Below, one piece after another: positions 16,847 through 24,595 of a stretch of DNA of 35,859 nucleotides. Source of the DNA: Candidatus Omnitrophota bacterium (GTDB lineage Bacteria > Omnitrophota > Gorgyraeia > JACQQV01); the NCBI GenBank assembly GCA_016206785.1, contig JACQQV010000031.1:1-35859 (forward strand), in the 5' to 3' direction. The position numbers were made by a program, and so were the translations under genes. The first letter of the stretch is position 1. The number at the start of each line of letters is the position of its first letter. A model generated the notes under the pieces. That model was not told where the DNA came from. It did no database searches and was given only the letters and a program-made list of their open reading frames with translations.

Positions 16847-18061
16847 TCATGCCTCGCCCCGCTCTTCCAAAAGGACCTTCTCTTTCGGCTCCAGTCCGAT
16901 TTCCTCATCCGTCAGATAACAGGCGGGATCCGACGCCCAGGGATCCTTGTAGAGGAGGTCCGCTCTCGCTCGGAAGGATCCTCCACACATCCTGAGGAAC
17001 TTACAGAAGCGGCAGCGCCCCTTGAGGAAATAGGCGCGGTGCCGCAGTCCATACAAAAGGGGATCTCTGTCATCCTGCCAGATTTCGCTAAACTTCCGCT
17101 CTCGGATATTTCCAAGCGTATAATGCATCCAGAATTGATCCGGATGGACATTTCCCTGGAAATCAATATCGGCAATCCCAATGCCTGAACTGTAAAGCCC
17201 TCCGCCATTCCATTCGAGAAGTTTTCTCACCTTCTCCGCCCGTTCAGAATCCTCTTGAAGTAATTTGAGATAAAGGTAAACACCATCGACATGGTTATCG
17301 ACGGTGAGAACCTCCCGAGGGAAACCGTTTTCCGAAAAGGCCTTTGTCCTTTTCAAAATGACTTCCATCGCCTGACGACTTTCCTCCGGTCTTAAATCCC
17401 AGTTTGAGAGAGCACCTCCCCGTCCGGAATAAACAAGGTGATAGAAGCAGGCGCGGTGAATTCCCTCTTCCTCAATGAAATCAAAAATACGGTCGAGGTC
17501 CCGGATGGTGTGGCGTGTGAGCGTCATCCGAAGACCCACTTTTTGACCAACGGTCACACAACTTCGGAATCCACGGACCGCCGCCCGGAAAGCCCCTTCT
17601 CTTCCCCGGAAATGATCATTGGTCACACCGATACCATCTAGAGATATTCCAACATAGACGAATCCCGATTTTTTGATCTGCCAGGCCACCTCTTCGGTAA
17701 TGAGTGTTCCATTCGTCGAAAGGGTGCACCGTAAGCCGACTGTTCTGGCGTACGAGGCGAGTTCAAAAAGATCTCCCCGGGTGAGGGGCTCCCCACCAGA
17801 GAGAAGGAGCGCCGGGATCTTGAAATCGGAAAGATCCTCAAGGAGTCTTCTCCCTTCCGCCGTCGTCAATTCCCCTGCATATCGTTTTGCCTCGGAATCG
17901 GTGTAACAATGAATGCAGCGTAAGTTACAGCTTTTGGTGACATTCCAGACAACGACAGGTCTTCGCTCTTGTGCGGAAGAAGGGGCCTCTTTCCCTTCTC
18001 CATATCGAAGCGTGTCTGAATCGCTTAAGTGACCGCAATACAGTTTGGAAATATTAATCAT
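16847..18061 (-). CDS. AhbC/NirJ1-like radical SAM-SPASM enzyme
   Basis: 404 residues. The start MINISKLYCG, then RRPVVVWNVTKSCNLRCIHC with CX3CX2C at Cys45/49/52, is the signature of AhbC/NirJ1. AhbC removes acetate side chains of 12,18-didecarboxysirohaem; NirJ does the related step in haem d1 synthesis. LSGGEPL binds SAM, and a SPASM region near 355-385 (CRFCKFLRMCGG) plus a late Cys binds a second cluster. The start overlaps the response regulator stop by four bases (ATGA), which ties tetrapyrrole synthesis to the two-component pair upstream. Confidence 0.78.
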   Translation of the reverse strand: MINISKLYCGHLSDSDTLRYGEGKEAPSSAQERRPVVVWNVTKSCNLRCIHCYTDSEAKRYAGELTTAEGRRLLEDLSDFKIPALLLSGGEPLTRGDLFELASYARTVGLRCTLSTNGTLITEEVAWQIKKSGFVYVGISLDGIGVTNDHFRGREGAFRAAVRGFRSCVTVGQKVGLRMTLTRHTIRDLDRIFDFIEEEGIHRACFYHLVYSGRGGALSNWDLRPEESRQAMEVILKRTKAFSENGFPREVLTVDNHVDGVYLYLKLLQEDSERAEKVRKLLEWNGGGLYSSGIGIADIDFQGNVHPDQFWMHYTLGNIRERKFSEIWQDDRDPLLYGLRHRAYFLKGRCRFCKFLRMCGGSFRARADLLYKDPWASDPACYLTDEEIGLEPKEKVLLEERGEA

Positions 18062-20449: not shown

Positions 20450-20480
20450 GAGGGAAGATTTATCTATGATTCAAATCATA
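20438..20480 (-). promoter_or_regulatory. FNR/CRP-like class II promoter of the 11-gene operon
   Basis: The dyad ATGAT-TCAA-ATCAT at 20466-20479 (flanked T/A) has the same half-sites as that at 5010-5023. On the minus strand a TAGATT -10-like hexamer lies at 20443-20438, centre 32 bases from the dyad centre. The predicted start is near 20431, giving a leader of about 19 bases. The dyad begins one base beyond the stop of the second CRP/FNR gene. Confidence 0.65.
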
Positions 20481-21157: not shown

Positions 21158-21186
21158 ATTATACCTTAAAAATGACCGAAATCATA
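21158..21186 (-). promoter_or_regulatory. Promoter of the second CRP/FNR gene, overlapped by an FNR-like dyad
   Basis: The minus strand has a consensus TATAAT at 21163-21158. At 17 bases upstream the -35 position is poor (TATGAT). The dyad at 21172-21185 fills the spacer and -35 region. Predicted start 21151-21149, at or next to the ATG. Confidence 0.45.
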
Positions 21187-21213
21187 TCCTTTTATCTTTG
21201 CATCTCTTAGAAT
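21172..21213 (+). promoter_or_regulatory. FNR/CRP-like class II promoter of the RiPP-like cluster
   Basis: The dyad ATGAC-CGAA-ATCAT at 21172-21185 has one mismatch to the motif of the other two sites. On the plus strand TAGAAT (21208-21213) has its centre 32 bases from the dyad centre. The predicted start, near 21220, leaves about three bases before the ATG at 21223, where no ribosome site is visible. Confidence 0.6.
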
Positions 21214-21222
21214 AAAAAGTCT

Positions 21223-22353
21223 ATGGAGACAGAAAAAGGAAAATTTCAAAGGATTCGAGAAGGGCGTTTCCCTCTCTGGGGGAGCCTGGAGGTGACCCAC
21301 CGCTGTAATCTCCGATGCCAGCACTGTTATGTGAATCTTCCTGCTTCCGACAAGGCGGCGAAGAATAAAGAACTTTCCTCCGAGGAAATTTTCCGAGTCA
21401 TTGATGAGGCTGCGGAGTGTGGACTTCTTTCCCTTCTTCTGACAGGCGGAGAACCCCTGCTGCGGCACGACTTTAAAGAGATCTATCGTTACTGCAAAAG
21501 AAAAGGGATTTTCATAACACTTTATACAAACGGGACCCTCATTGATTCTGAGATGGGCGATTTTCTTGCGGAGTGGCCTCCCACTTTGGTCCAGATCTCT
21601 CTCTATGGTGCCACCGCACAGACCTACGAGGCGGTGACAGGGATTCGGGGTTCCTTTAGGCGTTGCATGGAAGGGATTGAGCGGCTTATTGAACGGAAAA
21701 TCCCTTTAAGATTAAAAGCCATCGTGATGACGCTCAATCATCAAGAATTAAAAGAGATGGAAAAACTGGCAAAAACCTTTGGCTCTCCCCTCCGATATGG
21801 CACCTATGGCACCTTCCTGAGTCCTCGCCTCGATGGCAGAAAAGATCCTTTAAGATTTAGGCTCTCACCCGAACAGGTCCTCGCCATCGACTTAGAAAGG
21901 CCGACACGAATGAGAGAATATCGGAAAAGATGTTTGGATTGCCCGGCCTCGACCTCCAGAGCCCTCTATCCCTGTGAGGCGGGGAAAAGAACGTTCAACA
22001 TCGATCCTACCGGAAAACTGACTGTTTGTATGCTCTCGCGGAGGTGGCCGTATGATCTCCGCTCAGGGAATTTTAAAGAAGCATGGCTTGAATGGATCCC
22101 CAAAAGGGTCCTTTCTCAAAAAAGGGATCCTCTCCCCTGTGACCGTTGTAATATCCGGCACCTCTGCTCGAATCATTGCCCCGCACTTTCAGAGTTAGAG
22201 ATGGGAAAAAGTGGGGAGATCGTCCCCTATTTGTGCGAATGGGCACACCGACTGGCCGGGGCGTTTGGGCTTCGGCCGAATACCCCTGTGTTTCAAACAA
22301 AGGAGGACGGAAATGGAAAAAAGATGCAAGAAGAACACGAAGAAAAAATATAA
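21223..22353 (+). CDS. Radical SAM-SPASM peptide-modifying enzyme (RiPP maturase candidate)
   Basis: 376 residues. LEVTHRCNLRCQHCYVN carries CX3CX2C at Cys28/32/35; LLTGGEPLL is the SAM motif. The C-terminal region has a full SPASM pattern: a Cys in YPCEAGKRTF, GKLTVC, then CDRCNIRHLCSNHC (CX2CX5CX3C) and a last Cys (PYLCEW), binding two auxiliary clusters. This is the plan of enzymes that form thioether or C-C crosslinks in ribosomal peptides. Its 3' end contains the start of a 44-codon peptide gene, the probable substrate. No PqqD/RRE domain is visible in it. Start at 21223: no Shine-Dalgarno sequence, possibly leaderless. Confidence 0.88.
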   Translation: METEKGKFQRIREGRFPLWGSLEVTHRCNLRCQHCYVNLPASDKAAKNKELSSEEIFRVIDEAAECGLLSLLLTGGEPLLRHDFKEIYRYCKRKGIFITLYTNGTLIDSEMGDFLAEWPPTLVQISLYGATAQTYEAVTGIRGSFRRCMEGIERLIERKIPLRLKAIVMTLNHQELKEMEKLAKTFGSPLRYGTYGTFLSPRLDGRKDPLRFRLSPEQVLAIDLERPTRMREYRKRCLDCPASTSRALYPCEAGKRTFNIDPTGKLTVCMLSRRWPYDLRSGNFKEAWLEWIPKRVLSQKRDPLPCDRCNIRHLCSNHCPALSELEMGKSGEIVPYLCEWAHRLAGAFGLRPNTPVFQTKEDGNGKKMQEEHEEKI

Positions 22354-22447
22354 GAAGCCCGAACTCCAAAAAGTGACTCTTTATGTGGGGATAAAAACAA
22401 TATGTTCTCCAGAGTGCCCCCCACAAGGGGCCTCGCCGTGCGGGTAG
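22313..22447 (+). CDS. Probable RiPP precursor peptide, 44 residues
   Basis: A small gene with a strong AAGGAGG six bases before the ATG, overlapping the last 41 bases of the maturase in another frame and ending one base before the kinase start. The first about 20 residues are Lys-rich and include YKKPELQKVTLY, the kind of leader motif seen in precursors modified by radical SAM-SPASM enzymes. The likely core is the C-terminus, TICSPECPPQGASPCG, with Cys31, Cys35 and Cys43, Ser32, Ser41 and three prolines. Thioether bonds from the cysteines, or phosphorylation of a serine by the next gene product, are possible. The longer frame from 22211 lacks a ribosome site. Confidence 0.8.
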   Translation: MEKRCKKNTKKKYKKPELQKVTLYVGIKTICSPECPPQGASPCG

Positions 22448-22448
22448 G

Positions 22449-23339
22449 ATGCCGGAAGAATTTCCTTTAGAAATCGGGGGATGTTCCATTCTCCTCCAAC
22501 TCCCTCAAGAGGGCGAAGTCCCTGAGAGACTCCTTCCTTTCCGAAATCACTACCCTTTCGAAGACCCCTGCTGCATCCTTCGCACTTCCTTGAAACCTCC
22601 CCTATTCCAAAGAGGAAAGATCTTTTATGGTAAGGGAAAGGTTCTTCAGTTTTCATGCGGTCCGAAAGGGCTTTTGATTGAAATGTTTCTTAATCCCCCC
22701 TTGGACTTCTCCCCCTGGGCACTCCTTCTCAAACGAGAATGCACCCAAGGAATTCTTTATTTAAAAAAAGAGACGACAATTCTTTCTTCTCTCATATGGG
22801 CCGTTTTTTTAATTGTCTATTACCTTTTGATAAAACAAGGCGGCATTTTTGCCCATGCCAGTGGGGTCATTGACCGAAGAAAAGGGTTTCTGTTCGTCGG
22901 GCCTTCTGGGGCAGGAAAAAGTACGTTGGCTTCCCTTTGTCAAGAAGAAAAAGATTCAGTTGTTCTCAACGACGACCAAATCATTGTTCGAAAAAATGGG
23001 AGAACCTTTTGGCTCTTTGGTACACCGTGGCACGGTCCCTGCAAAAGCATCTCCTCACAGTCTGCCCCTCTTACCGCAATCTTTTTCCTCTCCCATGGGA
23101 AACAAAACCGCCTGATCCCTCTTTCTCCCAAAGAGGCGCTTAAAAGATTTCTTCCGGAACTCTACATCCCCCCATGGGATCCCAACGGACGTCCGACTCT
23201 TCTTTCCTTGGCACTTGAAGTCTGCGCAAAGATACCCTCCTATTCACTCGCCTTTACCCCTCAAAAGGAGGTGGTCCCCTTTTTGAGGGACTTCTTCAAG
23301 AATTATGACAAAAATCATACAAAAAAGACCTTCCCTTAA
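22449..23339 (+). CDS. HPr-kinase-like P-loop protein of the RiPP-like cluster
   Basis: 296 residues. The C-terminal half carries FAHASGVI, Walker A G151PSGAGKST, and NDD (174-176) as in HprK/PEP-carboxykinase-fold serine kinases. The N-terminal about 110 residues are unrecognised, and residues about 113-128 are hydrophobic. HprK homologues occur in lasso-peptide clusters, where they phosphorylate the precursor's terminal serine, and in the radical SAM SynChlorMet cassette (ScmC). It starts one base after the peptide stop. A general HPr kinase is unlikely because no PTS gene is near and the N-terminus differs. Confidence 0.82.
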   Translation: MPEEFPLEIGGCSILLQLPQEGEVPERLLPFRNHYPFEDPCCILRTSLKPPLFQRGKIFYGKGKVLQFSCGPKGLLIEMFLNPPLDFSPWALLLKRECTQGILYLKKETTILSSLIWAVFLIVYYLLIKQGGIFAHASGVIDRRKGFLFVGPSGAGKSTLASLCQEEKDSVVLNDDQIIVRKNGRTFWLFGTPWHGPCKSISSQSAPLTAIFFLSHGKQNRLIPLSPKEALKRFLPELYIPPWDPNGRPTLLSLALEVCAKIPSYSLAFTPQKEVVPFLRDFFKNYDKNHTKKTFP

Positions 23340-23368
23340 GGTACACTTTGCCTATATAAGGAACTCCC

Positions 23369-24595
23369 ATGCCTTCTGACAAACGGCTCAATCCGTGCGA
23401 ACTCGAAATTGACCTTTTCTGTAAAGGCGCGAAGATTGATCCTGCCCTCTCTCCTGAAGCGCTTCCCGCCCTTCACCGCACCCGGGCAGGGCTCGGGAGT
23501 GGGCTTGAGCTCATCCTTCCAGGGCCCCTCAAAAATATCTGGGTCAATGTCCCGGTGGAAGAGTCTTTTGCGAAAAGTTCCCCCTACCTTTTAACCAAAG
23601 CGAATGGTTCTTTCCATCTTCTTCACGAACCTTCCGAATTTGTCTATCCCGTTAAAATTCCTCCGGAACCGAGTTGGTATTCCCAAAAAACAAGCAAGGG
23701 AACGCTCATGAGCCGGGTGGGCATCCTTCAGGGAACCTATTTAGGCATTTATCTCTCCAACACCTGCCATTTCTGGTATAGCAGACCTGCCCCCACGAAC
23801 TGCGGTTTCTGCACCACTGGAAAAAATGTAGGAATCAACGAGGAGAGGACGAAAGATCTTGACGATATTGTCGAGGTGTGTGAGGCCGCCAAGAAGGAAT
23901 CGGGGGTCACGTTTGTCCACTTTAATACCGGATACCATACCCAAGGACGCGAACTGGACCTCATCGCCCCTTTTGTGAAGGGGGTAAAAGAAAAAGTGGG
24001 GCTTTTGATTGGAGTTCAGGCCACCCCTACTTCAGAGCTTTGGAAATATGACTGGCTTCGAGATCTGGGAGCGGACCATTTTTCCTTCTGTTATGAATTC
24101 CAGAATCCCGCCTATTTTGAGAAGTTTTGTCCTGGGAAATTTGAGAAGATCGGACAAGAAACCTTTTTTAAGGCGTTGGAATACACAACGAAGAAATTGG
24201 GAAAGGGGAGTTGTTCGGGCGAAATCATCGCAGGGGTTGAACCACTCGAGGATACCCTCAAAGCGATCGACTACATTACCTCTATAGGGGCCTTCCCCAC
24301 CGTCTGTATCTTCCGACCTCTTACCGGCGCAGATATGGAGAAATTTCCTTCTCCCTCTTATGAAGAGATGGTCATTGTGATGCGGCATATGTATGAGGCG
24401 TGCATGAAACGCAAGATTCCGATCGGGGTCGCTCCCAATATTGAAGTGAGCCTCGTTGTCCAGCCCGACGACGCCCAATACCTCGTGGAAAAAAGTTGGT
24501 CCCACCGCGCCTATCGCCTGTGGCTTAAAAGCCTCAAGTTTCTTTCAAAACCATATTTTACAAGGAAACTTATTCCACACCCTATTCACGCTTGA
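23369..24595 (+). CDS. Radical SAM-like protein with unusual CX11CX2C motif
   Basis: 408 residues. The only candidate cluster motif is Cys133-x11-Cys145-Gly-Phe-Cys148 (TCHFWYSRPAPTNCGFC), not the usual CX3CX2C; the aromatic residue before the last Cys fits the family. Downstream strands (TFVHFNTGYHTQGRELD, LLIGVQATP, CSGEIIAGVEP, TVCIFRPLTGAD) read as a TIM barrel with a radical SAM-like GxIxGxxE-type segment. AAGGA six bases before the ATG and a 29-base gap after the kinase gene place it in the cluster. It may be a second modifying enzyme or act on another small molecule. Function unknown. Confidence 0.75.
   Translation: MPSDKRLNPCELEIDLFCKGAKIDPALSPEALPALHRTRAGLGSGLELILPGPLKNIWVNVPVEESFAKSSPYLLTKANGSFHLLHEPSEFVYPVKIPPEPSWYSQKTSKGTLMSRVGILQGTYLGIYLSNTCHFWYSRPAPTNCGFCTTGKNVGINEERTKDLDDIVEVCEAAKKESGVTFVHFNTGYHTQGRELDLIAPFVKGVKEKVGLLIGVQATPTSELWKYDWLRDLGADHFSFCYEFQNPAYFEKFCPGKFEKIGQETFFKALEYTTKKLGKGSCSGEIIAGVEPLEDTLKAIDYITSIGAFPTVCIFRPLTGADMEKFPSPSYEEMVIVMRHMYEACMKRKIPIGVAPNIEVSLVVQPDDAQYLVEKSWSHRAYRLWLKSLKFLSKPYFTRKLIPHPIHA

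What the first reader, a model, noticed from the sequence alone, without database searches (positions are those of the whole stretch)
21172..24595. RiPP-like cluster: SPASM maturase, unannotated Cys peptide, HprK-like kinase, odd radical SAM protein
Four adjacent genes form one unit: a SPASM radical SAM enzyme, a 44-residue peptide with a Lys-rich leader and the core TICSPECPPQGASPCG, an HPr-kinase-like protein and a radical SAM-like protein with CX11CX2C. The peptide overlaps the maturase, has a perfect ribosome site and would be missed by standard gene calling. It recalls the SynChlorMet cassette and lasso-peptide kinases, but no PqqD/RRE gene or lasso protease is present, so the combination may be new. 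Crosslinking plus phosphorylation of one small peptide is the inferred chemistry.
Basis: partly seen in the sequence, partly recalled or inferred. Interest (0 to 1): 0.85.

Follow-up and report, generated by a model that had tools for sequence, protein, structure and literature searches.

The report
Radical-SAM and kinase peptide pathway
A tiny gene squeezed between a radical SAM enzyme and a kinase encodes a divergent member of a previously uncatalogued peptide-precursor family found in many mostly uncultured bacteria, a family predicted to be chemically altered by the radical enzyme and phosphorylated at its last amino acid.

Summary
In detail: SPASM radical SAM maturase (21223-22353), 44-aa peptide with a perfect Shine-Dalgarno (22313-22447) and HprK/PEPCK-fold kinase (22449-23339) form one unit. 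Homologous loci decide the matter. Of 104 kinase loci, 61 have a small ORF just upstream on the kinase strand with a Y-x-x-P-x-[LIVM] leader, against 3 on the opposite strand; 50 of the 61 directly follow the maturase. Typical members read YxKPx[IV]xxVxLxxEEAVLxxCK..C..C..GS and end in Ser/Thr (58/61; about 11% expected). Close relatives show purifying selection. The typical operon is PqqD, maturase, precursor, kinase, S26 peptidase, NTP_transf_5. The precursors match no Pfam or NCBIfam model. The nearest published system, the 2026 linear polyphosphorylated peptides of Bacillota, has no radical SAM gene.

Corrections: the 'odd' radical SAM protein (23369-24595) is a catalogued family absent from every other locus. 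PqqD, S26 and NTP_transf_5 homologues exist elsewhere in this genome. The kinase N-terminus is not an RRE. The window peptide is divergent: leader and three cysteines kept, C-terminal Ser lost, so phosphorylation here is less certain. In passing, two Omnitrophota genomes of 1.4-1.8 Mb carry at least 45 and 26 such precursor genes.

The parts
21223..22353 (+). SPASM radical SAM peptide maturase (376 aa)
   Evidence: 34-48% identical to 40 maturases that nearly all lie beside YxKP precursors; falls in a supported clade of 51 (99/92), 43 of them beside such precursors; model pLDDT 89, nearest folds SkfB and PqqE, then SuiB
22301..22306 (+). Shine-Dalgarno AGGAGG of the peptide gene, 6 nt before the ATG
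   Evidence: sequence
22313..22447 (+). RiPP precursor peptide, 44 aa: MEKRCKKNTKKKYKKPELQKVTLYVGIKTICSPECPPQGASPCG
   Evidence: same position and leader motif as 60 other loci; best HMM hit within the window (weak)
22349..22366 (+). Leader recognition motif YKKPEL (Y13-x-x-P16-x-L18)
   Evidence: YxxP is the characterised RRE-binding motif of lasso and LPP leaders (PMC13381572)
22397..22444 (+). Inferred core TICSPECPPQGASPCG with 3 Cys; leader/core border not shown; no C-terminal Ser
   Evidence: sequence; 3 Cys downstream of the motif in 47 of 61 precursors
22449..23339 (+). HprK/PEPCK-fold peptide kinase (296 aa)
   Evidence: AlphaFold2 pLDDT 92; Foldseek PEPCK and HprK/P, probability 1.00
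23369..24595 (+). Variant radical SAM protein (NF045502): adjacent, not part of the conserved system
21173..21184 (.). FNR/CRP-type palindrome TGACCGAAATCA between the divergent CRP-family regulator gene and the maturase (possible operator)
   Evidence: 10 such sites in the window, 2.2 expected
23306..23317 (.). FNR/CRP-type palindrome TGACAAAAATCA at the kinase 3' end, 51 bp before the variant radical SAM start codon (possible separate promoter)

Best explanation
This is a divergent member of a widespread family of RiPP operons. A short precursor carries a YxxPx[LIV] leader that a PqqD-type RRE protein, here probably supplied from another contig, is expected to bind. The SPASM radical SAM enzyme is expected to modify the Cys-containing core, most likely by forming Cys thioether or other cross-links. 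The HprK-like kinase phosphorylates a hydroxyl residue of the peptide, in most relatives the C-terminal Ser/Thr. In relatives an S26 signal-peptidase-like enzyme then removes the leader and an NTP_transf_5 protein may elaborate the phosphate. Shown here: gene content, the conserved precursor and its coding constraint in relatives, the terminal Ser/Thr rule, the predicted folds, and intact catalytic motifs. Inferred from related systems: RRE binding, chemistry, processing and order of steps. For the window copy, phosphorylation is the least certain step, because its peptide ends in Gly.
For: Small YxxP ORF upstream of the kinase in 61/104 loci against 3/104 on the opposite strand; 50/61 directly after the maturase, PqqD within 4 kb in 41/45 testable loci, S26 in 27/42 and NTP_transf_5 in 23/42. 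Purifying selection in relatives, dN/dS 0-0.74. C-terminal Ser/Thr 58/61, background 11%. Two more kinase loci in the same genome, each with a small Y-x-x-P ORF just upstream. The window maturase belongs with the precursor-linked maturases. Kinase fold and active site. [quoted passage not shown] the LPP kinase, RRE and SpI were shown experimentally (PMC13381572).
Against: The window peptide matches the family HMM only in the leader (E 0.07-0.19) and lacks the C-terminal Ser. There is no PqqD, S26 or NTP_transf_5 gene beside this locus. No close relative of this locus is held, so codon conservation of this very peptide could not be tested. No expression or product data.
Confidence: 0.8

Rival explanations
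1. Chance ORF: the peptide is not translated, and maturase and kinase act on another substrate, for example the C42 precursor of the same genome.
For: Weak HMM score, no terminal Ser, no codon-conservation test possible for this copy.
Against: Perfect SD, one-base spacing to the kinase ATG, right position, YKKPEL leader and three Cys; YxxP ORFs are 1.2% of control ORFs.
Confidence: 0.08
2. Degenerate cluster: a once canonical operon that lost PqqD, peptidase and terminal Ser and is decaying.
For: Missing neighbours; kinase Arg177 (54/58 in the family) is Gln here and non-basic in all three kinases of this genome.
Against: All ORFs open; catalytic residues of kinase and maturase intact; PqqD, S26 and NTP_transf_5 homologues elsewhere in the genome.
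Confidence: 0.12
3. The four-gene unit of the first reader, with the CX11CX2C radical SAM protein adding a second radical modification to the peptide.
For: Same strand, 29 bp between kinase stop and its start codon.
Against: Never near the kinase in the other loci; its homologues in two other genomes lie beside a UbiA-like gene and genes that look like cytochrome-biogenesis genes (read by eye); an FNR-type site lies just upstream of it.
Confidence: 0.06

Closest known systems
Linear polyphosphorylated peptides (LPP), Popov et al. 2026, PMC13381572
   Same: HprK-like kinase, YxxP leader; in relatives also discrete RRE, archaeal-type signal peptidase, NTP transferase and ABC transporter
   Different: A SPASM radical SAM maturase and Cys core; C-terminal Ser instead of LPP core Ser3; leader consensus differs (YxKPxIxxVxLxxEEAVLxxC against YxxPxVLxHQxIxFETxxS); found in Omnitrophota, Aminicenantes, Desulfobacterota, Nitrospirota, Chloroflexota and Acidobacteriota, whereas LPPs are described as restricted to Bacillota
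Paeninodin/pseudomycoidin-type phosphorylated lasso peptides (PMC8498205)
   Same: [Y/W]xxP leader, HprK-homologue kinase, C-terminal Ser in relatives, nucleotidyltransferase
   Different: No match to a lasso macrolactam synthetase or B2 protease among the operon proteins scanned; radical SAM maturase instead
SynChlorMet cassette (NCBIfam ScmC/D/E/F)
   Same: Kinase-like ScmC, PqqD-like ScmD and SPASM proteins are the same broad kinds
   Different: All scores far below the equivalog cut-offs (ScmC 18-34 against 125, ScmE 83-104 against 400, ScmD 30 against 100)
SkfB, PqqE, SuiB (SPASM peptide maturases)
   Same: Nearest solved folds of the maturase
   Different: About 15-22% identity; different substrates; no kinase known to me in those pathways

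Membership tests
RiPP pathway (general) | Genetically encoded precursor with conserved leader next to a modifying enzyme | tested here: met
RiPP pathway (general) | Leader-binding RRE (PqqD) | tested here: inconclusive
   41/45 relatives have it within 4 kb; absent from the window contig, present on C42 and C13
RiPP pathway (general) | Modified product | not testable with these tools
   needs mass spectrometry
LPP | HprK-like kinase | tested here: met
LPP | YxxPxVLxHQxIxFETxxS precursor motif | tested here: not met
   only YxxPx[LIV] is shared
LPP | Archaeal-type SpI and NTP transferase in the cluster | tested here: not met
   absent beside the window locus; present in 27/42 and 23/42 relatives; homologues on C42 of the same genome
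LPP | No core maturase (linear product) | tested here: not met
   SPASM maturase directly upstream in 50/61 precursor loci
Lasso peptide | Asn-synthetase-like macrolactam cyclase and B2 protease | tested here: not met
   no such Pfam or NCBIfam match among the window neighbours scanned
Lasso-type peptide kinase | C-terminal Ser substrate | tested here: not met
   window peptide ends in Gly; met in 54/61 of the family (Ser; 58/61 with Thr)
SynChlorMet | ScmC/D/E/F equivalog scores | tested here: not met
Sactipeptide/ranthipeptide | Cys-to-carbon thioether cross-links | not testable with these tools
   fold nearest SkfB; chemistry unknown
SPASM maturase | CX3CX2C and auxiliary-cluster cysteines | tested here: met

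The most novel reading that the evidence does not exclude
A distinct RiPP class in which one small peptide is both radical-SAM modified and phosphorylated on its C-terminal Ser/Thr, spread over at least six phyla, and expanded in some small Omnitrophota genomes into libraries of dozens of hypervariable cores; the window copy is a branch that lost the terminal Ser.
Probability: 0.6. Interest if true: 0.85.

Novelty: new variant of a known kind. Interest (0 to 1): 0.74.

Why it matters
It supplies a precursor family for operons whose enzymes are recognisable but whose substrates have no model in Pfam or NCBIfam. It joins two tailoring chemistries so far described in separate RiPP families and makes a sharp prediction: phosphorylation of the terminal Ser/Thr. 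That can be tested in a cultured relative, Herpetosiphon aurantiacus DSM 785 (CP000875.1, peptide at about 5936819-5936989, complement). Some Omnitrophota genomes devote dozens of genes to it, which points to an important ecological role.

Tried and rejected
RRE in the kinase N-terminus: rejected, beta-rich domain of PEPCK/HprK type. Variant radical SAM protein as a partner: rejected. SynChlorMet membership: rejected on scores. Lipoprotein reading of LxxC: considered and dropped, no hydrophobic signal segment. First kinase alignment too diverse for a collection scan; a closer subset worked. A sequence profile of the kinase against PDB chains found only P-loop matches, which is why the fold was predicted. 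Phage records: no match to the peptide. Literature on SynChlorMet, on HPr kinase with radical SAM and PqqD, and on Omnitrophota precursor peptides: no paper in the held library. An exact DNA pattern for LxxE[EQ]A[VIM]LxxC misses members that differ by a residue (0-1 hit in most genomes that the profile finds), so its counts are lower bounds.

Full report
What is there. On the + strand, 21223-22353 encodes a radical SAM protein with the SPASM cysteine pattern, 22313-22447 a 44-residue Lys-rich peptide, 22449-23339 a kinase and 23369-24595 a variant radical SAM protein. The peptide has AGGAGG six bases before its ATG, overlaps the maturase by 41 bases and ends one base before the kinase ATG. A CRP-family regulator gene lies divergently upstream and a tRNA-Phe gene follows. 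The genome (1.6 Mb, 50 contigs) has no held relative closer than its class; the loci of class-mates L004, L005, L006 and L008 match records named Candidatus Omnitrophota (L042, L044, L045, L073), so the organism is taken to be an omnitrophote (inference).

The same genome has two more kinases. On contig C42 a larger cluster holds PqqD genes, two SPASM proteins, a 63-aa precursor with a YETPKI leader and Cys core, the kinase and a third radical SAM protein. On C13, PqqD, a 42-aa YKKPTL peptide without Cys and the kinase follow each other. PqqD genes are found on C42 and C13, none on the window contig. An NTP_transf_5 protein that by eye also carries an S26-type domain is encoded beside the C42 cluster.

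Homologous loci. The kinase was found in 27 of 99 genomes of the class and in 80 named loci from a scan of public genomes (175 stretches confirmed, the best 80 kept): Omnitrophota, Aminicenantes, Desulfobacterota, Nitrospirota, Nitrospinota, Chloroflexota, Acidobacteriota and others, among them four Herpetosiphon species including the cultured H. aurantiacus. Counting only small ORFs with a Shine-Dalgarno and Y-x-x-P-x-[LIVM] near the start, 61 of 104 kinase loci have one just upstream on the kinase strand; 3 of 104 have one on the opposite strand; among distant ORFs the rate is 26/2254. The two strands do not hold equal numbers of candidate ORFs (289 and 160), which does not explain the difference. 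50 of 61 follow the maturase directly; PqqD is within 4 kb in 41 of 45 testable loci; an S26-type peptidase is in 27 and NTP_transf_5 in 23 of 42. The gene order is PqqD, maturase, precursor, kinase, peptidase, nucleotidyltransferase, sometimes with an ABC transporter.

The precursor. The consensus is KKxYxKPx[IV]xxVxLxxEEAVLxxCK, then usually two more Cys, then GS. The members scanned match no Pfam or NCBIfam model at E 1. Aligned pairs show purifying selection (dN/dS 0-0.74; Herpetosiphon geysericola against llansteffanensis 13 synonymous and 0 nonsynonymous changes). The last residue is Ser in 54 and Thr in 4 of 61, against 7.9% Ser and 3.1% Thr in long ORFs of the same loci. The exceptions are the window peptide (Gly), its C13 paralogue (Pro) and L014 (Tyr). 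Some kinase loci without a YxxP precursor carry ORFs with F or W in place of Y (FxPxITRVKLNPEQAVLxCxC), mostly ending in Ser.

The enzymes. The window maturase is 34-48% identical to 40 family members and falls in a supported clade of 51, 43 of them beside YxxP precursors. Its predicted fold (pLDDT 89) is nearest SkfB and PqqE, with SuiB further down. The kinase model (pLDDT 92) matches PEPCK and HprK/P with probability 1.00, although the TM-scores over the whole kinase are modest (0.33-0.46). H136, the Walker A Gly156-Lys157, Thr159 and Asp175 are invariant in 58 kinases. Arg177 is present in 54 of 58; the only non-basic residues there are in the three kinases of this genome, two of which sit beside peptides without a terminal Ser. 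Three kinases of one genome are too few to prove a link.

The fourth gene. It scores 194.9 bits to NF045502 (cut-off 125), is absent from all other kinase loci and is found in two other genomes of the class, in other surroundings. I leave it out of the system.

Comparison. The closest published system is the LPP family (PMC13381572): RRE, HprK-like kinase, archaeal-type signal peptidase and NTP transferase, with a YxxP leader. There the kinase adds phosphates to core Ser3, the peptidase removes the leader with RRE help, and the authors describe the product as linear and the family as restricted to Bacillota; the text does not mention radical SAM. Paeninodin-type lasso kinases phosphorylate the C-terminal Ser (PMC8498205). 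The family here has the LPP tailoring set, the lasso-kinase terminal Ser, and a SPASM maturase. SynChlorMet models score far below cut-off. The literature library is open-access only and holds no preprints, so priority elsewhere cannot be excluded.

Verdict.

Noticed in passing
G243 (L182-L186, L190, L191), G088 (L172-L181), G111 (L187-L189): Genomes of 1.3-1.8 Mb with many precursor genes: exact pattern 45 in G243 and 26 in G088 (read-backwards control 0), 13 profile hits in G111; cores differ widely, the last residue is Ser in 15/15, 25/26 and 2/2 of those read.
   Followed up: partly
window 20467-20478, 21173-21184, 23306-23317: FNR/CRP-type palindromes TGAYNNNNRTCA: 10 in the window against 2.2 expected (0 of 100 shuffles reach 10), three of them around this locus, which has two CRP-family regulator genes upstream.
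   Followed up: partly
L031, L069, L077, L089, L091, L098, L107, L110, L116: Second leader type in Omnitrophota and Saganbacteria loci, F/W for Y and NPEQAVLxC, mostly with terminal Ser, often in multi-maturase clusters.
   Followed up: partly
L032 1050-1178 (G000 C13): PqqD, 42-aa YKKPTL peptide without Cys (ends IGP) and kinase, with no maturase found in the 12 kb fetched; near a contig end.
   Followed up: no
window 16847-18061 (-): SPASM protein scoring 536 bits to NirJ1 and 504 to AhbC, both below the 650 cut-offs: a heme-pathway relative near the RiPP locus.
   Followed up: no
window 22977-22979 (kinase residue 177): Arg in 54/58 kinases, Gln/Tyr/Thr in the three kinases of this genome; possible tie to the loss of the terminal Ser.
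   Followed up: partly
L152 1492-1665 (-): Another precursor ending in Gly (STASG), a precedent for the Gly end of the window peptide.
   Followed up: no
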